A stretch of DNA of 57,096 nt from Candidatus Competibacter sp. (GTDB taxonomy: Bacteria; Pseudomonadota; Gammaproteobacteria; Competibacterales; Competibacteraceae): positions 12,346-69,441 of the forward strand of contig JARSSH010000049.1 of assembly GCA_029624815.1 (NCBI GenBank). Direction: 5' to 3'. The translations under genes and the position numbers were made by a program. This document shows, piece by piece, positions 160-9,272 of the stretch. Within the stretch, counting starts at the first letter, position 1. Each line of letters begins with the position of its first letter. The notes under the pieces were generated by a model. The model saw only the letters and a list, made by a program, of their open reading frames with translations. It did not search any database and was not told where the DNA came from.

Positions 160-723
160 TCAGAACCACGGAATCGTTGCGGTCGGACTCAGGCCATAGG
201 CACTAAATTTGCCGTTCGTCGGTTGCTCTCGAACAGCCAGATGCTCCACGAACAAGCGAAACTGTTGGCCGGTGCTCTGGCTGGTCAAAACTAGGTAGGG
301 CAGATTTAACCGTTTCGCCTTACCATCTGGAATCACCTGGATGGCTTGCTCGATGGTCACACCTCTTCGGGCGATCAATCGCCGCCGTTGGCGTTCCGGG
401 TTACTCTTGACCTGCACGCGACGCACCACTCGCTGCTTGGCGTGAGCAGGAACCTCGGTAATCTCGCTCACGGCTGCATGATCCCGCATCCCCACCAACC
501 AGTTGGAGAGCATCAGCTTTTCCAGCCCAACCCTGTTACTGTGCAAGCGCAAGCGTTCACCTAAGGATCGGCCATTCTTTCCGACATCCGGGAAACTCAC
601 GCCGATGTTGCGCCCGCCATGCGTGACCAATCCACGGTGCAACTTGCCGAAAAGGACGTTCATCAGGATCGGGGCAGAGAATTCCGGATCGAGCAGGAGC
701 CGGATATCGATATAACGGTCCAT
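160..723 (-). CDS. cas6f: Cas6f (Csy4) crRNA-processing endoribonuclease
   Basis: The 187-aa product has the length of Pseudomonas Csy4 and closely follows its known sequence pattern, including the N-terminal MDRYIDIRL, the arginine-rich helix SNPERQRRRL and the C-terminal STGQQFRLF and IPWF segments. The presumed general base His29 is present (KLHR). Csy4 binds the repeat hairpin, cuts 3' of its stem and remains on the crRNA 3' end as part of the Csy complex. An in-frame TTG two codons upstream overlaps the csy3 stop, but ATG at 723 gives the family N terminus. It is the last gene of the csy operon and sits next to the leader. Confidence 0.95.
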   Translation of the reverse strand: MDRYIDIRLLLDPEFSAPILMNVLFGKLHRGLVTHGGRNIGVSFPDVGKNGRSLGERLRLHSNRVGLEKLMLSNWLVGMRDHAAVSEITEVPAHAKQRVVRRVQVKSNPERQRRRLIARRGVTIEQAIQVIPDGKAKRLNLPYLVLTSQSTGQQFRLFVEHLAVREQPTNGKFSAYGLSPTATIPWF

Positions 724-725
724 GT

Positions 726-1787
726 TCAACCGGCCTCGCCGAAGACCCCACCGCGCACCAGGGTGGCGATGACGAAATGTTGCTGTTCCAGTTCCGGGAT
801 CTGATCCTTGATAATCCAGTTGTGGAGCAAGTTATAGAAGTCCTGTTTGGGCTTTGGTTTTCCGTTTTCATCTTTGCCAGGATTAGGTTGTCGGTAGGCT
901 TTCCCCTGGGTCGTGACCGAACCATAGGGTTCTACGGCGATAGGCCCGAGTTCGTCGGCGCCGTCATACCAAGTATCGATGGTACGCAGAGCATTGCCGA
1001 CCTTCTGCGAGTGGATGCCGGCGATGCCACCCACTGCATAGAGCGTCTTGCTCTTGTCGCCCCGGCCACGATCGAGAATGAGTTCCTGCGAGGGGAACAC
1101 TTCCTGTCCAGCGCCCATGCGGACAAAGGCGGTAATCTCCAGCAGTACATGTTGCTCGCCGGCAAGCCCTCCCGCGATCAGGGTGGCGAGAGCGTCGAGC
1201 GCTGCACCTGCTTTGGCGCGGTGTTCAAAGCTACGCAGCGAGAGCGATAAGGCATCGAAGATCCAGCTCTCTTTCGCAGCACCGCCGACGAGGTGCGCAA
1301 CGTGCACTTCGACCTGTTCGGCGCCGATGCGGTTGCGCCACAAAAAGCGGCCATTGGCAAGATTGAAAGCATAGCGGCGGGCCAACTCGCCAAAACCGTT
1401 GGTCTCGGTGTAACCGTGGACCGTGGCCACCAGTTTATTCCGGTAATCTGCATCGTTGCAGGCCGAAGGCTTGCCGGTGCCGCCCAGCACACGCAGGGTG
1501 AAACTCACTTTCAGCGTATCGGCATCGCTGGGCAGGGCGGCGACATCCACCGTTTGCAGGTTGGGGTTCTCGATAGCGGCATCCAGCTTAGCCGGATCCT
1601 GATCTTTGGTCTTGAGCCGGTTGGAGATGGTGCCGCGCACGGATTTTTCGCGGATCGCGACGGCGGACCAACCGGTACTGTTGCTGCGCATGTCCCAATT
1701 TCCGGCATGGAAAAGCGCGTCGGAAGGGTCCAGCTTGCGTTCAAAAGCAAGGACGGAAGCGGTTTTGAGATCTTCTTTTTTAGCCAT
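726..1787 (-). CDS. csy3: Cas7f (Csy3), crRNA-binding backbone subunit
   Basis: The 353-aa product matches the Csy3 family from its start ([19 protein letters not shown]) through the GNW and RGTISNRLK segments. Six copies normally line the 32-nt guide of a type I-F Csy complex, and their thumbs displace every sixth guide base. The longer open frame to 1898 runs into csy2; ATG at 1787 is preferred because AAGGAATC lies just upstream and the product then begins like the family. The gene follows csy2 after 22 bp and its stop abuts the cas6f start, consistent with one transcript. Confidence 0.94.
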
Positions 1788-1809: not shown

Positions 1810-2814
1810 TCAGGCTGAAAGTGGAGCGGTATCGTCGGTGTCAGCGACGTAATCGTTGCGGCAGCGATAAAGGCCAGACTCGGTGTCAGTCGTGGCATAC
1901 CAGAGCAATTGATTCACATCAGTCAATCGGTGAGGGCTGACCCACTGGCCGATGGAATACAGACTTTCGACGAAGCGGAACCAGGTTTTGCCATCGCGGG
2001 CGTTTTGTACGTGACCCGGAGGGAACAATTCGGACAGAGCGCCGTAACCAACCGGAATGGGAACGATCCAACCATCCCTGGGCTCGGGTTTCCACTCAAC
2101 TCGCTTCGGCGTTGCATCCGATTCGTTCGCTATGGATTCAGGCCGTACCGGTTGCCAGTTGAAGCGTGCAAGATCGAGAAGCGCATCCAGAGCGGTGGCC
2201 GTGGGCGACGCTTCACGCAGGCGTGTGAGCCGATCGCGTAGCAGATCGTCCCTGCTGACCAAGGCAAAACCAGGTAGCCAGCGGCGGCGGAGATAACGGA
2301 AGCTGCGGCGCATATCCTCAGTCTCCCCACCTAGCAAAATAATCTCGGGGCGAGAACGCCAGTCTCGACCGGGGAGCACGCTGCCGCCCGCGACCCGCAT
2401 GCAGGACAATTCCTCCAAGGTCGCTTTCACGATAGCGGCTTGCGCTTCGCGATCCAGCCTAACAAAACCGCCGCTTACGCCGAACGCCAAGGTGATCTCC
2501 ATGTGCATGCGGCCCTCTTCGACGATAGCGACGGTACTGCCGTCTTTATCGATGGGGTTGCGCGTCAGGCAAAATGTCTTGACGTAGCTACCTGAGGTAA
2601 CTTGTTCTTCGAAGTCATGGCAGATCACGCCGATACTGTCCAAAGCCAGCGGGAAATCATGGCGCTCCAACCGACGCGCAAGCGCCCACATCAACCCGAG
2701 GAATGCCGTCATTGCCGGGAAACCATGCGTCAGCGGGCTGGAGATGGCGTTGGCGTTCTGTACGCGAAGGTGTGGTAACACCAGTAACCCATCGCTGTGG
2801 GGCAAGGTGCTCAT
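1810..2814 (-). CDS. csy2: Cas5f (Csy2), crRNA 5'-handle subunit
   Basis: The 334-aa product begins [19 protein letters not shown], the typical Csy2 opening, and continues with a [21 protein letters not shown]-like stretch seen in the family. Csy2 pairs with Csy1 at the foot of the Csy complex and holds the 8-nt 5' handle of the crRNA. The open frame extends to 2889, but the ATG at 2814 overlaps the csy1 stop by four bases, the usual translational-coupling arrangement, and gives the family N terminus. No frameshift or missing region is apparent. Confidence 0.93.
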
Positions 2815-4178
2815 TGCTTGGCTCCCCGCGTGGCAATGTAAGTCGGTGCTTCCGCTGCAACCCGCTGATGGTGTAGCACGCCCGCCCACTCGGTATGCAA
2901 CAGGAGTTCATCGCGCCATTGACGGCCTTCGATATCGCCGAGCGGCAATGTTTGACCAAGTGCGTGGTTCAACCAATTACCGAAGCGCCGGCCAATACCC
3001 ATCGGCCAATCCATCCATTGCCAATGACTACAGAATTCCGCATCAGCGGCATCCTCGGACTCGGCCCGGCGTGGATCGAGCCAGAGTTTTTCATCGTCCG
3101 CGAGCCGGCAATTAAGGTTTCGCGTCCATCCCGCAGACAGGGTGGCCTGCCGAGAATGGGCAAAATCGACCAATTCATCGATCAAGCGATCGATTAAAGC
3201 AGTGCGCCGGTCACGGGTGTCCTTGTTGGGTGGTGGATCGCTCAGCAGAAAATCGCGCAGTATCTTGGCTGTTTGCCGGACTTCCGCGATGCGACCAAAG
3301 AATGGGAAGACCGAATCGACGAATAAAGGGGCTTTGACAGGTTGGGTTTTCCAGTTGGGTGGACTGGAGGCTAACAGGTAGTTGTTGCCCCCTCGTTCGC
3401 TGTTTAGCTGACTAATGTTCTGCGGCTTGGTGCCGCCAAACTTTTGTACCGCCAAACTGGGATATTCGTGGTAGCCGGTTTCATGATCGCGATGTTCACG
3501 CCGCGCCTGCCGGGCGAGTTTGCCAGCTTCGCCAAAGCGATCTTCATTGATCGTTTGAAACACGGTATGCGCTAACGTGCTGGAATAAAGCGGGGCCAGT
3601 AGATGGTAGGCGGTATCGTCGGCCGGATCTTCGTCAGCTAGCCAGTAGATCTGTTTGGCGAGTGTGTGGGAACCAGGTTTGGCGCTACGTGGGGTGGTAA
3701 TGCCACGAAAGGCATCGGCCCAATTCTGGGCTTGCTCGGCGTCATCGCTCAGTGCAGCCAGCAAGTCCAGGTCGCACTCCTGTAGCCAGTCGAGCAGCGA
3801 TCGTCCGCTGACCTCCAGCTTCAGCAGCTTATAGACGTCCAAGGCTGCGGCGTTGCCGACGACATCACTGCTGAATGCGTCACCGAGCGCATGGCTGCCA
3901 ACTTCATCGCGAGGCTTCAACTCGCTTGGCACACAGAACAGATTGGTGCCGCGTGCATCGGGGTGGATGGGTTTAAGCGTATGGGTGACAACCTGAATCC
4001 ACGCAACACGCTTTGCCGCTTCAGCCAGCCAGGCTTCGCGTGCAAACTGAGCGATCAGTTCATCTCGCTTTGGGTCGTCGGGCTGCAGCTTGTCGAGCTT
4101 GCCATTGAGCCGATCCGTGAGGAAGGTCTCAATGGCATTGCGGAAAGCTGCCCGGCGTTCGTTAGAAATACCAGTCAT
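2811..4178 (-). CDS. csy1: Cas8f (Csy1), large subunit and PAM reader
   Basis: The 455-aa product is assigned as Csy1 from its position before csy2, its length, and family-like segments such as the N-terminal RNAIETFLTDRLNGKL and the central KFGGTKPQNISQLNSERGG. In I-F complexes this subunit recognises the CC PAM and, with Csy2, caps the 5' end of the crRNA. It is the first gene of the csy1-csy2-csy3-cas6f operon. Its ATG is preceded by only a weak GAGAGA, and a short upstream frame with a far stronger Shine-Dalgarno overlaps its start (see 4162-4278). The operon promoter is probably at 4385-4413. Confidence 0.93.
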   Translation of the reverse strand: MTGISNERRAAFRNAIETFLTDRLNGKLDKLQPDDPKRDELIAQFAREAWLAEAAKRVAWIQVVTHTLKPIHPDARGTNLFCVPSELKPRDEVGSHALGDAFSSDVVGNAAALDVYKLLKLEVSGRSLLDWLQECDLDLLAALSDDAEQAQNWADAFRGITTPRSAKPGSHTLAKQIYWLADEDPADDTAYHLLAPLYSSTLAHTVFQTINEDRFGEAGKLARQARREHRDHETGYHEYPSLAVQKFGGTKPQNISQLNSERGGNNYLLASSPPNWKTQPVKAPLFVDSVFPFFGRIAEVRQTAKILRDFLLSDPPPNKDTRDRRTALIDRLIDELVDFAHSRQATLSAGWTRNLNCRLADDEKLWLDPRRAESEDAADAEFCSHWQWMDWPMGIGRRFGNWLNHALGQTLPLGDIEGRQWRDELLLHTEWAGVLHHQRVAAEAPTYIATRGAKQ

Positions 4179-4278
4179 GGGATTCTCTCGTGATTACGAA
4201 AAACGTAGAATCCCCAGAGCGGTGCTCCGGGATGTGGAAATATCTCGCGTCAGACTCTTCTGACCAGGTGGTAGTCAT
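4162..4278 (-). CDS. Possible 38-codon upstream ORF overlapping the csy1 start
   Basis: An ATG at 4278 opens 38 codons ending at 4162, out of frame with csy1 and running past its ATG by 14 bases. A strong AAGGAGG lies at 4291-4297, 12 nt upstream of the ATG. The same Shine-Dalgarno is ideally spaced for a GTG followed directly by TGA. The peptide (start MTTTWSEESD) matches nothing I recognise. It may be a leader peptide that couples translation to csy1, or the strong site may simply reflect a mis-chosen start. Treat it as a candidate regulatory frame, not as an established gene. Confidence 0.25.
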   Translation of the reverse strand: MTTTWSEESDARYFHIPEHRSGDSTFFVITRESHDWYF

Positions 4279-4350
4279 TCACACCTGTATCCTCCTTCCT
4301 GCAACATTTCCTGTAGGTGGAGCCACTTGACTTGGCTTTCGTACCGCGCG

Positions 4351-4378
4351 CCCCATCAAGACGGCCATCTTGGTGGGG
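4351..4378 (-). other. Stem-loop at the 5' end of the predicted csy mRNA
   Basis: CCCCATCAAGA and TCTTGGTGGGG form an 11-bp stem with one G-T pair around a 6-base loop. Read on the minus strand it begins about where transcription from the TATAAT at 4390-4385 should start, so the csy mRNA would open with this hairpin. No T-run follows on either strand, so it does not look like an intrinsic terminator. A stabilising or regulatory 5' hairpin in a roughly 200-nt untranslated leader is the simplest reading. Confidence 0.55.
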
Positions 4379-4384
4379 CATCAA

Positions 4385-4413
4385 ATTATAGATCCCTAGT
4401 CACTGTTAGGTGA
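4385..4413 (-). promoter_or_regulatory. Predicted sigma-70 promoter of the csy1-csy2-csy3-cas6f operon
   Basis: On the minus strand a perfect -10 TATAAT lies at 4390-4385. With a 17-bp spacer the -35 is TCACCT (4413-4408), a poor match to TTGACA. Transcription would start near 4378, about 200 nt before csy1. The CreR-like protospacer (4397-4422) and its PAM (4395-4396) cover the spacer and -35 of this promoter, so a bound Csy complex would be expected to block RNA polymerase. Confidence 0.6.
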
Positions 4414-4422
4414 GCTAGTAAC
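4395..4422 (+). promoter_or_regulatory. Partial protospacer with CC PAM for the CreR-like guide
   Basis: CC at 4395-4396 is followed by a 26-base site that matches the guide at 4497-4522 at 19 positions. Guide positions 1-5, 7, 8, 10, 11, 13-17, 19, 21, 22, 25 and 26 agree; 6, 9, 12, 18, 20, 23 and 24 differ. Every sixth position (6, 12, 18, 24), which Cas7f flips out of the duplex, is mismatched, so 19 of the 22 positions able to pair would do so. The similarity ends at the guide boundaries. The site lies over the csy promoter. Confidence 0.8.
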
Positions 4423-4470
4423 AAGAAGATAATGAAGTACTGGAGAGGCTACGCTTTCTGATAAACTTTT

Positions 4471-4544
4471 GCAACTGCTGAAAAGCAGCTCAGAAATAGT
4501 CTCTATTTGGTGATCAAGCCACGTTAACTGCCGAACAGGCAGCC
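4471..4544 (+). ncRNA. CreR/CreA-like degenerate mini-CRISPR (crRNA-like regulatory RNA)
   Basis: Two degenerate I-F repeats flank one 26-nt guide. Repeat 1 (4471-4496) has stem CTGCT/AGCAG around a GAAA loop and the exact array handle CTCAGAAA (4489-4496). Guide: 4497-4522. Repeat 2 (from 4523) begins GTTAACTGCC, has the complete stem CTGCC/GGCAG around GAACA (4528-4542), and diverges right after the expected Cas6f cut at 4542. Processing would give 8-nt handle, 26-nt guide and 20-nt 3' hairpin, 54 nt in all. Compared with the array repeat at 2-29, repeat 2 agrees at 18 of its first 21 positions. A possible -10 GATAAA lies at 4460-4465, with no good -35. The guide fits the csy promoter. Published relatives are the Cas-regulating (CreR) and CRISPR toxin-antitoxin (CreA) RNAs. 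Confidence 0.82.
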
Positions 4545-4553
4545 ATTGCCTCC

Positions 4554-4844
4554 ATGAAATCTTCTCTCGTCCTTTCCTCCTACAGCGCGGGCATTCGCGA
4601 TCTGATATCGCGCCATCATGTTGTAAACCCTAGGGTATTCGGTTCCGTCCTGCACGGTACCGACGAGGAGGGCAGCGATCTCGACCTATTGGTCGATCCG
4701 CTTCCAGGCACGACCTTGTTCGATCTTGGCGGTTTGCAGGTCGCGCTTGAGGACTTGCTCGGGGTTCCGGTGGATGTGGTCACGCCGGGCGATCTGCCCG
4801 CGCGGATTCGTGCGCGGGTCGTGGCGGAAGCCCGGCCCTTGTGA
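4554..4844 (+). CDS. Small MNT-type nucleotidyltransferase inside the cas locus
   Basis: The 96-aa product carries the minimal nucleotidyltransferase signature GSVLHGTDEEGSDLDLLVD (about residues 29-47): the GS pair and the first two metal-binding aspartates (SDLDL); VDVV near residue 74 would supply the third acidic position. Such domains usually act with a HepT partner (MntA antitoxin AMPylating HepT), but no HepT-like frame follows; only 82 bp separate it from the cas2-3 stop. It is the only gene in the locus on the plus strand. Its ATG lies 12 bases after the Cas6f hairpin of the mini-CRISPR, with no clear Shine-Dalgarno, so it may share that RNA's transcript. Whether it is an antitoxin relic, a toxin guarded by the locus, or a regulator is unknown. 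Confidence 0.8.
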   Translation: MKSSLVLSSYSAGIRDLISRHHVVNPRVFGSVLHGTDEEGSDLDLLVDPLPGTTLFDLGGLQVALEDLLGVPVDVVTPGDLPARIRARVVAEARPL

Positions 4845-4926
4845 GTCGGCCGCAACGGAACAATCTGCTGCCGACCAACCAAACACCGGATGCCGGCTGA
4901 GCAGCGTTGCGTGAGGGCAGGATTCA

Positions 4927-7900
4927 TCAGCGTTTCCGCGTAAAACCCAAGGCGGGATGAAAACGCCAGCCCTGAGCGTTTTCGGGCAGGGTCACGGTGC
5001 CGTAGCGCATGGCGCATTCATCCAGCGAGCGGTCGAATTCCGTCGCCAGCGCGGCGAGTTCTTCCATGTAGTCGCTGCCGCCCCACGGCTCGATGCGAAT
5101 TCCGCTCACTTGCTCGTCGGGAATGCGATGGTTCAGGTTTTCCTCGACTTCGACGTAGAGCTTCCGATAGCGCTCCTTGCTGGGGGCGATACGGTGCAGG
5201 ACATAGTCTTCGCCTTCCTCGTCGGGCAGCAGAACCAGTTCCACCCGCGGGATCGGATCGAAACGAAAGGGTTGCTGCTGCGGCAAGACGCCCGTAAGCG
5301 AGACTCCAGGCCGCAGCCAGTGGGTCGTGGCATTGAGGGGCGGCGCCGGGAGCGCGCCCTTGCGCCGCTGATAGGCACTCAGCTCGGCTTCGCCGGACTG
5401 CGGCAGCATCTGGTACTGGATGCGCGCATGCTCAAGATCGACCAGCCGCTGCGTTGGCCGCAAGGTGTCATTCGGTCTGGGCAGGATGCGAGGCCGGGCG
5501 TCGATCACCGTGCGTTCGTCTTCCTCTAAAAGATCCGCGAGCCGATAGGCTTGTAGGCGGAAACGGACATCGGCGGTCTCGAAACCTGGCTTGCAATAGG
5601 CAGGTTCATTTGGGTGCTCGAAGTGGCGCAGGTTGCCATCGAGCACCATCAGATTGGGCTTCTCCACCGTGCCAAGACGATGGCGGCGAATGCGGCCCGC
5701 TAACTGGATGAGCGAGCGCATGGAAGACGGTTCGACCACAGCCCAATCGTAGTCGTGGTCGCGACCCACCTCAGTAACCGGACTGCCAAGCACAATGAAG
5801 ATCTGGTCAGGTTCAGGCGCTGTGGCCAGCCTGCCACGGATTTCCGGCAGTGCGAACACGGCATCGGGCTGGCGCCGGTTCAAGGCCGCATCGAGACGCC
5901 GTTCGATAGCGGAGCGGGTCAGCAGCGGGAACTGCGAATGGTAGACGCACAGGTGGATGCGCACGCCGGGCGGTGCGCCCAGGGTGTACAGGGCCAGCGC
6001 GACGTCGATGAGCGGATCGATGTTGGCCATGCGCAGGAGACCAAAGCTCACCCGCTTGCCGGATTGCGGATCGATCGCATGATGGTCGGCGTGCAGGCGC
6101 AGGGCGGCTGCGAACATCGTGGTGGCCAAGCACGGCCGTAGATCGTCGTAAGGTTTGCCATCCAAGGCGAGCGGCGCCAATTCGGCGCGACGGCGAACCA
6201 CTTCCCCAGCCAGTCGCGCATGGCGGCGCTGGGCAAATTCAAGTTGCCGAATCGCGAACACCTCTCCATCTCGGCAATCTTGCGTGACTTGGTCGAATTC
6301 ATCGACCCACATACAGCAAACTTCGGGCGCTTGACCGGGGTGCTCACCCCGATTGCGCTGGAACCAGCGCCGCCCGTCCAGATAGGCCGCGAACAGTCCT
6401 TGCACCAAAGCGGGTGGCAAGGTGGCCGAAGACAACAGTACCCGGCTGCCCAGCAATCCCGCCCAGTGCACCAGGCGGGCGAGTGCGGGTAGATCGTCGA
6501 TATCGAAATCATCCGGTTCGTCGAGCACCAGATCGCTGCTCATCAGACGCAGCATCGGCGCGATCTGCCGGCCGCCACGCTGGCTTTCGGTGGCGGGCAC
6601 GAGGTGATCGATGGTGCAGACCAACAACGGCGCCGCCAGCAAGGCATGGATGGCGGGCTCGTGGGACAGGCGCTGTAGCAGAGGGTGATCGCGGTTGCCT
6701 TCGAATTCCACGCCGCCATCCTCGGCAAGTAGCGCTTGGGTGGATTCCGAGCCGCTGTTTTCGGCGAGTTGGGCGTAGTGTTCGAATAGCTCGCGGCTGG
6801 CGGCCCCGCCGACCCGGATCGCGAGCGCGGTGTCGGACAACTGCAAGAGATCACGAAAGGCGCGGCCCGTTTGTAGCGTCAAGGTACGCAATCCAAGGGC
6901 GAAAGCGCATCGCATCCCCAAGGCCGGGTCGGCCAGCGCATTCATGATGCGCGCATTAGCCAGAGTCTTGCCGCAGCCGGTGGAGGCCATGTTGACGATG
7001 AAAGCGCCGTGCTTTCGAGCCGTTTCCCGTAGCGAGGCTGCCACATCGGCAGCCTTGTCTTGCCAGGCAAAGCGCGTGTTGCCGCTACGCTTGCGCAGAC
7101 CACGATGATTGACCAGCCGGGGCAGATAACGCTCGAAACCAGGCAGGGCGTGGCTGACGACTCCCGCATGACGGGCAACACCCAGCAGGTGCTCGTCCAA
7201 TGTCTGATTGAGTTCGCCGGTTTTACGGTTGGTATTGGCGAACAGGGGATAGGTGGGGTTGAGGTCGGTGCGCTGGCTCCGTTCAGTCTGACTGGAGTAA
7301 TGATGATCGGCCAGCATCAGGCCGAGGCGGCTCAGGTGCATGATGTAGGGATCGTCCAGCCCGTGGAGATGATCATCCTTGCTTTCGAGGTCTTGCAGCC
7401 GTTTGGCCGCCCGTGCCGCGCGCTTGCGCCAGGCATCGGTGATGACCGGTAAACCCTGCGGAAACTGCCAATAGGGTTCGATGGCTTTGCGATCGTTTGT
7501 GTCAGTGAGTTCGTTCCAGTTCGCGTCGATCTTGTTCAGCAAGCCGTCGAGTTTCACTGAATGCAGGTTTCTTACCCTAGCGCCTAACCGGAGCCACTGT
7601 CCTTTGCCGTCTTCCGCAGGCATTACCGGCAACCGATGATGAGTCAGCACCAGCCAGCCGACCGCTTTGGCGAGTGGCGGCATGTGTGCAAAAGGCTTGT
7701 TGCCACGCGCGGCGAGGTCGATCCCATCGCGCAGCAATCGCTGGGTCCAGCTTGCGTCGTCTTCGGCTGTCGGGTCGATGAGACGGGCCAGCCATTGCGC
7801 GTCGTTGCTTTCGCCGATGAAGGACTGGAACAGTCGCAGCGATACCCATTCATGGCGATACAGGTTGCGATCCATGGGGCCACGAATCGTCAGGCGCATC

Positions 7901-8298
7901 TGAAAGGCCAGGCAGGCTTTGCCAAGGTCGTGGAGTAGCGCGGCCAAGGACGAAAGCAGGTGGATGGCAGTCAGGCTATGCCAGTCGTTCTCATCCTCGC
8001 GGCGCAGCACGTTGCGCCGGGTGATGTTGGTCGGCGTCGCGCCTTGCGCGTTGAACTGCCGGGCGTCGCCCACGATCCACAGCAGTTCGCTGTGATCCTT
8101 ACCGCGTATCCAATGGCAGGCGACCGCCGTATTCTTGCGAGCGGTCTGTCGCAGCAAACGGTGCAGGGTCTCCAAACCCTGTTGAGTAATAGGCGTTTGC
8201 CAGGTCCGGTCGCCGCGTCGTTCGGCGAACTGGTCGAGAATGCGTCGGGTTTCAGTGAGCGCGTTCTTGCTGCACTGGGAAATCAGCAGGACGTTCAT
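4927..8298 (-). CDS. cas3: Cas2-Cas3 fusion nuclease-helicase of type I-F
   Basis: The 1123-aa protein joins an N-terminal Cas2-like domain (about 1-95, start MNVLLISQCSKNALTETRR) to an HD nuclease domain (LLHDLGKACLAFQ near 120) and a superfamily 2 helicase with ASTGCGKT (Walker A), LVLDEPDDFD (DExx-type box) and SSATLPP (motif III). This fusion is diagnostic of type I-F: it associates with Cas1 for spacer uptake and is recruited by the Csy complex to degrade target DNA. It overlaps the upstream cas1 gene by four bases. Downstream it is separated from csy1 by the nucleotidyltransferase and mini-CRISPR interval, so the csy genes probably need their own promoter. Confidence 0.95.
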   Translation of the reverse strand: MNVLLISQCSKNALTETRRILDQFAERRGDRTWQTPITQQGLETLHRLLRQTARKNTAVACHWIRGKDHSELLWIVGDARQFNAQGATPTNITRRNVLRREDENDWHSLTAIHLLSSLAALLHDLGKACLAFQMRLTIRGPMDRNLYRHEWVSLRLFQSFIGESNDAQWLARLIDPTAEDDASWTQRLLRDGIDLAARGNKPFAHMPPLAKAVGWLVLTHHRLPVMPAEDGKGQWLRLGARVRNLHSVKLDGLLNKIDANWNELTDTNDRKAIEPYWQFPQGLPVITDAWRKRAARAAKRLQDLESKDDHLHGLDDPYIMHLSRLGLMLADHHYSSQTERSQRTDLNPTYPLFANTNRKTGELNQTLDEHLLGVARHAGVVSHALPGFERYLPRLVNHRGLRKRSGNTRFAWQDKAADVAASLRETARKHGAFIVNMASTGCGKTLANARIMNALADPALGMRCAFALGLRTLTLQTGRAFRDLLQLSDTALAIRVGGAASRELFEHYAQLAENSGSESTQALLAEDGGVEFEGNRDHPLLQRLSHEPAIHALLAAPLLVCTIDHLVPATESQRGGRQIAPMLRLMSSDLVLDEPDDFDIDDLPALARLVHWAGLLGSRVLLSSATLPPALVQGLFAAYLDGRRWFQRNRGEHPGQAPEVCCMWVDEFDQVTQDCRDGEVFAIRQLEFAQRRHARLAGEVVRRRAELAPLALDGKPYDDLRPCLATTMFAAALRLHADHHAIDPQSGKRVSFGLLRMANIDPLIDVALALYTLGAPPGVRIHLCVYHSQFPLLTRSAIERRLDAALNRRQPDAVFALPEIRGRLATAPEPDQIFIVLGSPVTEVGRDHDYDWAVVEPSSMRSLIQLAGRIRRHRLGTVEKPNLMVLDGNLRHFEHPNEPAYCKPGFETADVRFRLQAYRLADLLEEDERTVIDARPRILPRPNDTLRPTQRLVDLEHARIQYQMLPQSGEAELSAYQRRKGALPAPPLNATTHWLRPGVSLTGVLPQQQPFRFDPIPRVELVLLPDEEGEDYVLHRIAPSKERYRKLYVEVEENLNHRIPDEQVSGIRIEPWGGSDYMEELAALATEFDRSLDECAMRYGTVTLPENAQGWRFHPALGFTRKR

Positions 8299-9272
8299 TG
8301 CGCCCGCTTCCCCATATCGAGGGCGACTGCCTTCACGGTGTCGATCATGAAATCCAGCGCTTCGGTACGGGAAAAACTCTCGATACAGGCGTGGCGAAAG
8401 GTTTGCTCGTCATCGCCCCGCGCAGCGGAAATGAAGGCTTGAGGCAGGATCACCGCGTCCTTGATCAGGTCCGCCACGTCGAACACCAGCCCACCCCGGC
8501 GAGTCTTGCCGTGCAGAACCGCGAGACCGTGTGGCAGGCCGAGCACCCAGGTCGCGGTAGCCCCCAATCCATAGGCCAGATAGTTGCCGTGATCCAAAAA
8601 GCGATTGGCCGGATCGGTTCCCGTGCCGTTCTTGGCACGGACGAAATCGCCGTAATCCACCGCGCGGACCGCGAACTTGAACAGTTTTTTGGTGAGGCGC
8701 GCTTCTTCGGTCAACAGGGCCGTGTTATCCATAGCCGCATCGAGCAGATGCCGCGATTCTTCCAGGGCGGACAACAGGGGTTCGCGCGGAACCTGAAAGC
8801 CGTTGTCAGCCAGTAGTCGGTTGTCGCACCAGTGCGCGGCGATACGCTCCAATCGGGCGCGTTGAAATGTCTTGGCCGCTTCCAGGCGCAGACCGTCATC
8901 GAACCAGAAGCGCACCCAGCTTTGCAGGTATTCCGTCGGGCGGTATTCACTCTGCGGGGCGAACCAGGCGACTTCAATATCGAACTCGTTCGCGCTGTAA
9001 AGGGGTGTACCACCGCCCCCGCAAAAACCGACCATGACGCCCGCCTTGGCCAGCTCGCGCATCGCTGCTTGGGTGATGGAAGTGCCCGTGCCGAGCAGCA
9101 GGGATGTGGTATTGGCGATGGGAATATTCCAGTACAGGGAGTTCTTCCCTTGATCGGTGACGTATTCCACGCGCCCACCGTTAACCAGCACGCGACAATG
9201 TTCGAGGTAATAGAGGTTGGCTCGCTTGGAATGCAGAATGGTTTTTAAATCGGAAGGAGAAAAATTTTCCAT
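8295..9272 (-). CDS. cas1: Cas1 integrase, type I-F
   Basis: The 325-aa protein has the I-F Cas1 opening (SPSDLKTILHSKRANLYYLEHCR split by its N-terminal MENF), the GTGTSITQAAMRELAKAG segment, and the C-terminal catalytic region with HGNYLAYGLGATATWVLGLP and HGKTRRGGLVFDVADL, where the metal-binding His and Asp occur. With Cas2-3 it integrates new spacers at the leader-proximal repeat. It is the first gene of the cas1-cas2-3 transcription unit. A GGAGA lies within its first codons rather than before them, and the likely -10 is only 13 bases upstream of the ATG, so the mRNA may be nearly leaderless. Confidence 0.95.
   Translation of the reverse strand: MENFSPSDLKTILHSKRANLYYLEHCRVLVNGGRVEYVTDQGKNSLYWNIPIANTTSLLLGTGTSITQAAMRELAKAGVMVGFCGGGGTPLYSANEFDIEVAWFAPQSEYRPTEYLQSWVRFWFDDGLRLEAAKTFQRARLERIAAHWCDNRLLADNGFQVPREPLLSALEESRHLLDAAMDNTALLTEEARLTKKLFKFAVRAVDYGDFVRAKNGTGTDPANRFLDHGNYLAYGLGATATWVLGLPHGLAVLHGKTRRGGLVFDVADLIKDAVILPQAFISAARGDDEQTFRHACIESFSRTEALDFMIDTVKAVALDMGKRAQ

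What the first reader, a model, noticed from the sequence alone, without database searches (positions are those of the whole stretch)
4395..4422. The mini-CRISPR guide matches the promoter of its own csy operon, with a correct PAM
The 26-nt guide at 4497-4522 agrees at 19 positions with 4397-4422, preceded by 5'-CC, the I-F PAM. The first eight positions agree except position 6. The site overlaps the -35/spacer of a promoter with perfect TATAAT that reads toward csy1. Similarity stops at the guide limits. A Csy complex loaded with this guide should repress csy1-4, giving a feedback loop that senses crRNA or Csy shortage, for instance when anti-CRISPR proteins are present. Partial pairing would allow binding without efficient Cas3 cleavage.
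Basis: partly seen in the sequence, partly recalled or inferred. Interest (0 to 1): 0.95.

Follow-up and report, generated by a model that had tools for sequence, protein, structure and literature searches.

The report
CRISPR-guarded toxin minigene before csy1
A tiny degenerate CRISPR unit next to a bacterial immune system carries a guide that matches a control region just upstream; what that region appears to control first is a very small toxin-like gene, which would make the cell depend on keeping its CRISPR immune complex.

Summary
The 26-nt guide (4497-4522) matches 4397-4422 at 19/26 with a CC PAM; mismatches include every flipped-out sixth position (6, 12, 18, 24). Permuted guides reach 19/26 with CC in 7 of 3000 trials over 57 kb and 19/22 at pairing positions in 0 of 3000. 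At up to 3 mismatches it is the only non-self hit in the genome.

The interpretation needs changing. Between target and csy1 lies an overlooked minigene (4282-4250, minus): strong SD, GTG start complementary to codon 5 (CAC), AGA AGA (AGA is the rarest codon in the window's long ORFs), stop. It shares length and its last six residues with the minigene read from the Acinetobacter LoGeW2-3 CreTA locus, and a matrix from nine other loci ranks it first in the window. Best reading: a type I-F CreTA addiction module rather than mainly csy autorepression. csy1 starts 71 nt later, so csy1-4 may be tuned too.

Among 82 csy1 loci, 29 carry such a unit: in 10 the target lies 22-86 nt from csy1 (CreR-like); of the 19 others, 13 have the minigene. 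Function is inferred; nothing was tested at the bench.

The parts
4469..4496 (+). psiR1: degenerate I-F repeat (stem CTGCT/AGCAG with a 4-nt loop, by eye) ending in an intact 5' handle CTCAGAAA
   Evidence: last 8 nt identical to the array repeat CTTCACTGCCGAATAGGCAGCTCAGAAA
4497..4522 (+). psiS: 26-nt guide of the CreA-like RNA
4523..4550 (+). psiR2: repeat with intact hairpin CTGCC..GGCAG and decayed last 8 nt
4397..4422 (+). target of the guide (19/26; 19/22 outside the flipped sixth positions)
4395..4396 (+). CC, the I-F PAM, directly 5' of the target
4385..4390 (-). TATAAT, possible -10 reading toward creT and csy1; -35 not recognisable
   Evidence: sequence; one search found no full sigma-70 promoter
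4350..4379 (-). GC-rich hairpin near the start of the inferred creT transcript
   Evidence: 4178-4380 folds with z -2.92 against shuffles
4291..4297 (-). Shine-Dalgarno AAGGAGG, 8 nt before the GTG
4250..4282 (-). creT-like minigene GTG AAT GAC TAC CAC CTG GTC AGA AGA GTC TGA (VNDYHLVRRV); tandem AGA at 4261-4256
   Evidence: top matrix site of the 57-kb window (39.7, next 5.6)
4210..4233 (-). GC hairpin with a loose T stretch between minigene and csy1; possible leaky terminator
   Evidence: not called as a terminator by the scan
2811..4178 (-). csy1 (cas8f)
1810..2814 (-). csy2 (cas5f); start chosen by me
726..1787 (-). csy3 (cas7f); start chosen by me
160..729 (-). csy4 (cas6f), expected to process the guide RNA
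4927..8298 (-). cas3f (Cas2-Cas3 fusion)
8295..9272 (-). cas1f
4554..4844 (+). MntA-like nucleotidyltransferase gene, 3 bases after psiR2; no HEPN partner recognised next to it
   Evidence: 31.2 bits, below the NCBIfam MntA cut-off of 60; a similar gene at the same place in L078
1..28 (-). leader-proximal repeat of the main CRISPR array, which continues left of the window
   Evidence: 205 repeats in contig C49

Best explanation
This is a type I-F CreTA module (CRISPR-regulated toxin-antitoxin) in the cas3-csy1 gap. The mini-CRISPR (creA) is transcribed, cut by Csy4 into one crRNA-like RNA (5' handle from psiR1, 3' hairpin from psiR2) and loaded into the Csy complex. That complex binds 4397-4422 through PAM and partial pairing (sixth positions flipped out) and blocks transcription of creT. 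creT is a short RNA with a strong SD and a 10-codon minigene whose start lies in a hairpin with the codon-5 region and whose codons 8-9 are the rarest codon seen here (AGA AGA). If Csy is lost, broken or inhibited, creT is made; ribosomes initiating on it would tie up the rare tRNA-Arg(UCU) and/or jam on the structured start, stopping growth, so the cell is addicted to its CRISPR effector. csy1 lies 71 nt beyond the minigene, so read-through from the same promoter may also restore Csy (a built-in CreR-like effect). Shown by sequence: guide, PAM, target, repeat decay pattern, minigene and its relatives, codon rarity. Inferred: transcription, processing, repression, toxicity, tRNA sequestration, co-regulation of csy1.
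For: Guide-target match beyond chance and unique in the genome. Sixth-position rule: in the 28 loci found by repeats alone, positions 6/12/18 mismatch in 59 of 84 cells, the other 15 of the first 18 positions in 46 of 420; in the final 29, 64 of 87 vs 37 of 435. Asymmetric repeat decay: 5' handle form kept in psiR1 26/26 vs psiR2 2/26, canonical stem in psiR2 26/26. Minigene: same length and last six residues HLVRRV as the one I read in the LoGeW2-3 record, which agrees with the published mini-ORF in length, SD and codons 2, 3 and 5; in WCHA45 that toxin needs SD, start codon and start-codon hairpin (PMC10097628). A matrix from 9 other loci ranks 4282(-) first in 57 kb, 39.7 vs 5.6. Start codon and codon 5 complementary in 11 of 12 rows, with AU in 7 and GC in 4 at the varying pair. 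AGA is rarest of 61 codons, 17 of 14,715; one tRNA-Arg(UCU) found by pattern. Shuffled leader: SD + short frame + AGA-AGA 2 of 20000; codon-5 pairing as well 0 of 20000.
Against: No transcript, processing, repression or toxicity data. No recognisable promoter for creT or csy1. In A. baumannii the paper names only codons 2, 3 and 5 as sensitive to synonymous change, so rare-codon sequestration is not what that experiment showed. Only one of the three start-hairpin pairs varies on both sides, and sliding the partner by 2 columns gives almost the same covariation score (0.328 vs 0.338), though fewer paired cells (72.2 vs 97.2%). In the window the best local fold uses a shifted register, CAGGUG/CACCUG. 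The minigene starts with GTG, and a 38-aa frame from ATG 4278 runs into csy1, so the SD could serve a csy1 leader. The downstream hairpin lacks a tight T tract.
Confidence: 0.77

Rival explanations
1. Pure CreR: the guide RNA makes the Csy complex repress its own csy1-4 operon, so that csy expression rises when crRNA or Csy is short or inhibited; the minigene is just part of the leader.
For: Target lies upstream of csy1; in 10 of 29 related loci the target is 22-86 nt from csy1 with little room for a toxin, so this use is likely at the same site elsewhere; CreR is reported for I-B, I-E and V-A (review passage). An array of 205 repeats would compete for the same complex.
Against: A CreT-like minigene sits between target and csy1 in this window and in 12 other far-class loci.
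Confidence: 0.13
2. Attenuator: the short reading frame with two rare Arg codons and the following hairpin form a translation-controlled leader of csy1, and the guide match is a second control layer.
For: SD, short frame with tandem rare codons, then a GC hairpin just before csy1; the region just before the csy1 start can pair with GGGGATTCT.
Against: The codons at that place differ between relatives (AGA, ATA, TTA), the hairpins lack tight T tracts (by eye), and codon 5 stays complementary to the start codon in 11 of 12 rows, which fits CreT better.
Confidence: 0.05
3. Ordinary relic: a leftover spacer resembling a nearby sequence by local duplication, without function.
For: Guide and target are similar on the same strand 100 bp apart, as a duplication would give.
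Against: Divergence is concentrated at positions that do not pair in the Csy complex, across loci; similarity ends at the guide limits; the repeat parts needed for one guide RNA are the parts kept.
Confidence: 0.02

Closest known systems
Type I-F CreTA of Acinetobacter sp. WCHA45 / LoGeW2-3 (Wang et al. 2023, PMC10097628; abstract, sections 6, 9-12, 15, 29 and passages read; figures and supplement not seen)
   Same: Place (cas3-csy1 gap), divergent two-repeat creA, CC PAM, partial match, 33-bp mini-ORF with SD toward csy1, start-codon hairpin; HLVRRV end as in the LoGeW2-3 record.
   Different: Different lineage; GTG/CAC instead of ATG/CAT; tandem AGA AGA, the rarest codon here; 26-nt guide (WCHA45: 20 nt); MntA-like gene next to creA. 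In WCHA45 the target is downstream of the mapped promoter; here a TATAAT lies on the csy1 side of it.
Haloarchaeal type I-B CreTA (H. hispanica, H. hubeiense; PMC8501985, passages read)
   Same: Degenerate-repeat guide represses a small RNA with strong start signals and two consecutive rare codons (AGA or AUA).
   Different: Archaeal I-B systems with other minigene sequences; there the tRNA sequestration was shown by experiment.
CreR, cas-regulating RNA (primary paper not held, nothing of it read; passages of reviews PMC13131331, PMC12737573, PMC12948488)
   Same: Mini-CRISPR RNA directing the effector to a promoter upstream of cas genes.
   Different: Described as generally not coupled with toxin genes; one review names I-B, I-E and V-A. 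Here a toxin-like minigene intervenes.
CrePA (review passages only)
   Same: Effector-repressed toxin tied to a CRISPR-Cas system.
   Different: Protein toxin; here an RNA minigene. Some other surveyed loci encode small proteins at this place.

Membership tests
Type I-F CRISPR-Cas | csy1-4, Cas2-Cas3 fusion and Cas1f | tested here: met
   each above the cut-off of its own NCBIfam I-F model
CreTA | creA: guide between two degenerate repeats that keep 5' handle and 3' hairpin | tested here: met
CreTA | partial PAM-flanked match of the guide to a nearby control region | tested here: met
CreTA | creT: small gene with strong translation start signals downstream of the target | tested here: met
   (sequence only)
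CreTA (I-F Acinetobacter type) | hairpin involving start codon and codon 5 | tested here: met
   GTG and CAC are complementary, but the predicted best stem in the window is CAGGUG/CACCUG, which takes in only the first base of GTG
CreTA (haloarchaeal type) | two consecutive rare codons | tested here: met
CreTA | toxicity of creT and its suppression by effector plus creA | not testable with these tools
   needs expression experiments
CreR | target controls cas genes | tested here: inconclusive
   csy1 is downstream but behind the minigene and a hairpin; the promoter scan found nothing for either
CreR | generally no toxin gene coupled to it (as a review puts it) | tested here: not met
   CreT-like minigene at 4282-4250; toxicity itself untested

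The most novel reading that the evidence does not exclude
One promoter serves two ends: Csy-CreA holds down a toxin minigene and the csy operon behind it, so losing Csy both poisons the cell and remakes Csy, and only cells that can rebuild the complex recover. The minigene family unites the Acinetobacter start-hairpin toxin with the haloarchaeal tRNA-sequestering toxins, since across I-F loci it mostly keeps both a start-codon hairpin and tandem rare-type codons (AGA, ATA or TTA). The same site in other I-F systems is a toxin-free CreR, so CreR and CreTA would be interchangeable states of one locus.
Probability: 0.4. Interest if true: 0.8.

Novelty: new member of a known kind. Interest (0 to 1): 0.62.

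Why it matters
It moves the finding from a regulator to a probable CRISPR-guarded toxin, and shows that such units lie in the cas3-csy1 gap well beyond Acinetobacter: 29 of 82 surveyed csy1 loci. The pooled sixth-position pattern is a natural record of how the Csy complex reads targets for repression. The tandem rare-type codons suggest a simple test (extra tRNA-Arg(UCU)) for the I-F CreT toxin, whose exact target the Acinetobacter paper left open.

Tried and rejected
Considered and set lower: pure CreR as the main reading (minigene in between); attenuation (codons vary, no tight T tracts); the 38-aa frame from ATG 4278 as a csy1 leader (none of the 13 other minigene loci has a start within 11 nt after the minigene start whose frame reaches csy1); chance; duplication relic.

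Led nowhere: csy1 relatives in viral contigs (none); one Burkholderia locus from genome contigs, in which the repeat search and the pairing search found no unit; promoter scan. Literature searches for I-F autorepression, I-F CreTA, MNT/HEPN next to creA and CrePA were seen as listings; they showed no paper on a native I-F CreR, but most subscription papers are not held. The primary CreR paper and the supplement of PMC10097628 could not be read; that paper reports 19 more creTA modules, so some surveyed loci may already be listed there.

Results against or weaker: of 31 units first flagged, L064 and L079 were dropped because their best CC matches are unconvincing; keeping them gives 66/93 vs 49/465. 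Three units (L049, L060, L097) were found by a score that ignores sixth positions, which favours the pattern; the count without them and with L064 and L079 is 59/84 vs 46/420. An unrestricted search put a non-CC site one match higher in L060, L062 and L096. 53 of 82 loci have no divergent unit; 28 of these have a gap of 120 nt or less and 12 could not be resolved. Pooled p values are nominal because loci are related; dropping 5 sister loci (24 left) gives 55/72 vs 29/360. The survey holds one genome twice (L008, L012). Matrix training loci were picked after seeing the window, and the shuffle tests were designed after seeing the minigene. Two of 14 minigenes (L034, L086) lack a tandem pair of these codons; codon rarity was measured only in this window. 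In the 5' stem of psiR1, 22 of 26 pair fully in the fixed register, three more with a 4-nt loop by eye, L061 with one mispair.

Full report
Observation. The guide at 4497-4522 and the sequence 4397-4422 agree at 19 of 26 positions, with CC directly before the target and no similarity outside the guide. The mismatches are 6, 9, 12, 18, 20, 23 and 24. In type I effectors every sixth base is flipped out of the duplex and pairs imprecisely (PMC7305327, one passage read). All four such positions mismatch here, so the match at pairing positions is 19/22. Permuted guides reach 19/26 with CC in 7 of 3000 trials over the 57 kb and 19/22 at pairing positions with CC in 0 of 3000 (locally 2 and 0 of 20000). 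In the 3.63-Mb genome the CC-plus-guide pattern with up to 3 mismatches hits only the target and the guide itself.

Setting. The locus is a complete type I-F system: cas1f, cas2-3f, csy1-4. The main array lies left of the window on the same contig, with 205 repeats, 199 of them identical, mostly at 60-bp spacing. The mini-CRISPR sits in the cas3-csy1 gap, pointing away from csy1. Its first repeat keeps the last 8 nt of the array repeat; its second keeps the hairpin while its last 8 nt have decayed. Those are the parts a unit making one guide RNA needs.

What is under the targeted region. On the csy1 strand, after the target, come TATAAT (4390-4385), a GC hairpin (4350-4379), AAGGAGG, a 10-codon frame GTG AAT GAC TAC CAC CTG GTC AGA AGA GTC TGA (4282-4250), a second GC hairpin, and csy1, 71 nt after the stop. 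Wang et al. 2023 (PMC10097628) describe the same layout in Acinetobacter: creA with two degenerate repeats in the cas3-csy1 gap, CC PAM, and a 33-bp mini-ORF with SD downstream of the target. In WCHA45, toxicity needs the SD, the start codon and a hairpin of the start codon with codon 5. Reading the LoGeW2-3 plasmid (L063) I find MFSTHLVRRV, which agrees with the published mini-ORF in length, SD and codons 2, 3 and 5; the window gives VNDYHLVRRV.

Survey. I collected csy1 loci from relatives, class, order and phylum samples, one Burkholderia locus and 7 of 17 plasmid hits: 82 loci with the window. 28 were flagged with a divergent mini-CRISPR by repeat pairs alone and three more by a repeat-blind self-match search. 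In the 28, with no pairing used to find them and targets picked by total matches with CC, positions 6/12/18 mismatch in 59 of 84 cells and the other 15 of the first 18 in 46 of 420. Two of the 31 were dropped as unconvincing. In the 29 left the best CC-flanked match lies on the guide's strand between unit and csy1 in 29 of 29; mismatches at positions 1-5 are 0 of 145, at 6/12/18 64 of 87, at the 15 others 37 of 435. The sixth positions are thus near the 75% expected of unrelated bases while the rest are held. In 26 units found by repeats, the 5' handle form CTNAGNAR is kept in 26 of 26 first repeats and 2 of 26 second repeats.

Two layouts. The gap from target to csy1 is 22-86 nt in 10 loci and 189-535 nt in 19. 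The near group has little room for a toxin and looks like CreR. The reviews I could read in passages name I-B, I-E and V-A for CreR or type I and V-A in general. In the far group 13 loci, the window included, carry the SD-minigene; a 14th minigene (L039) has no detected unit. Tandem rare-type codons are AGA AGA or AGA AGG in 9 of 14, and ATA ATA, TTA ATA and TTA TTA in one each; L034 and L086 have none. They fall at codons 8-9 in most, at 6-7 in L039 and L090 and at 9-10 in L065.

Tests of the minigene. A weight matrix from 9 other loci, the window not among them, scores 4282(-) at 39.7; the next best of all positions in 57 kb is 5.6. Start codon and codon 5 are complementary in 11 of 12 rows: AUG with CAU in 7, GUG with CAC or CGC in 4 (L065, with an extra codon, left out, L039 and L090 counted as one row). 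97.2% of cells pair against 8-72% for slid controls, but only one pair varies on both sides and the slide by +2 has nearly the same covariation score (0.328 vs 0.338), so the covariation support is modest. AGA is the rarest of the 61 sense codons in 30 long ORFs of the window (17 of 14,715; in-frame AGA-AGA occurs once), and one tRNA-Arg(UCU) gene was found by pattern. Shuffled leaders give SD + short frame + AGA-AGA in 2 of 20000 and with codon-5 pairing as well 0 of 20000.

Mechanism and limits. The best reading is CreTA: Csy-CreA represses creT, and loss of Csy frees it. Toxicity, repression and rare-tRNA sequestration are inferred. In A. baumannii the paper names only codons 2, 3 and 5 as sensitive to synonymous change, so the tandem codons may matter only in hosts where they are rare. 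In haloarchaea two consecutive AGA or AUA codons were shown to cause the arrest (PMC8501985, passages). Whether the promoter also drives csy1 is open: the scan recognised no promoter in 4100-5000, neither the inferred one nor one for csy1, and the second hairpin lacks a tight T tract.

Verdict. As a kind this is known (I-F CreTA); the lineage, the breadth and the combined start-hairpin plus rare-codon signature are what it adds.

Noticed in passing
window 4554-4844 (+); L078 from about 410 bp upstream of csy1, pointing away from it: An MntA-like nucleotidyltransferase gene starts 3 bases after psiR2, with no HEPN partner recognised; L078 has a similar gene at the same place followed by a HepT-like fragment that looks frameshifted.
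   Followed up: partly
L036 about 877 bp upstream of csy1; L065 2974-4008: Other protein toxin-antitoxin genes sit in the same gap: a CcdA antitoxin homologue and a VapC-family toxin plus an XRE regulator (annotation). The gap may be a landing site for such genes.
   Followed up: partly
L049, L061, L098, L099 upstream of csy1: In place of the minigene, small proteins lie between target and csy1 (L049 and L061 similar, 39% over 33 residues; L098 and L099 short and hydrophobic, by eye); no Pfam match for the three tested, L049, L061, L098. Candidates for CRISPR-repressed protein toxins. L099 has no confirmed unit.
   Followed up: partly
L015 (G034) and L017 (G022), cas3-csy1 gap: Mini-CRISPRs pointing the same way as csy1 with 32-nt spacers that match, by position, the end of cas3 (27/32, PAM GC) or the start of csy1 (27/32, PAM CT) of their own locus.
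   Followed up: no
29 surveyed loci: Position 14 of the guide mismatches in 13 of 29, more than any other non-sixth position in the first 18; no explanation.
   Followed up: no
contig C49 left of the window: The main array has 205 repeats and runs to near the contig edge; the first leader-proximal repeat spacing is 129 bp instead of 60.
   Followed up: no
L039 (G316) upstream of csy1: A minigene with AGA AGA but no unit detected by either search, although L090 with a nearly identical minigene has one; possibly a decayed antitoxin.
   Followed up: no
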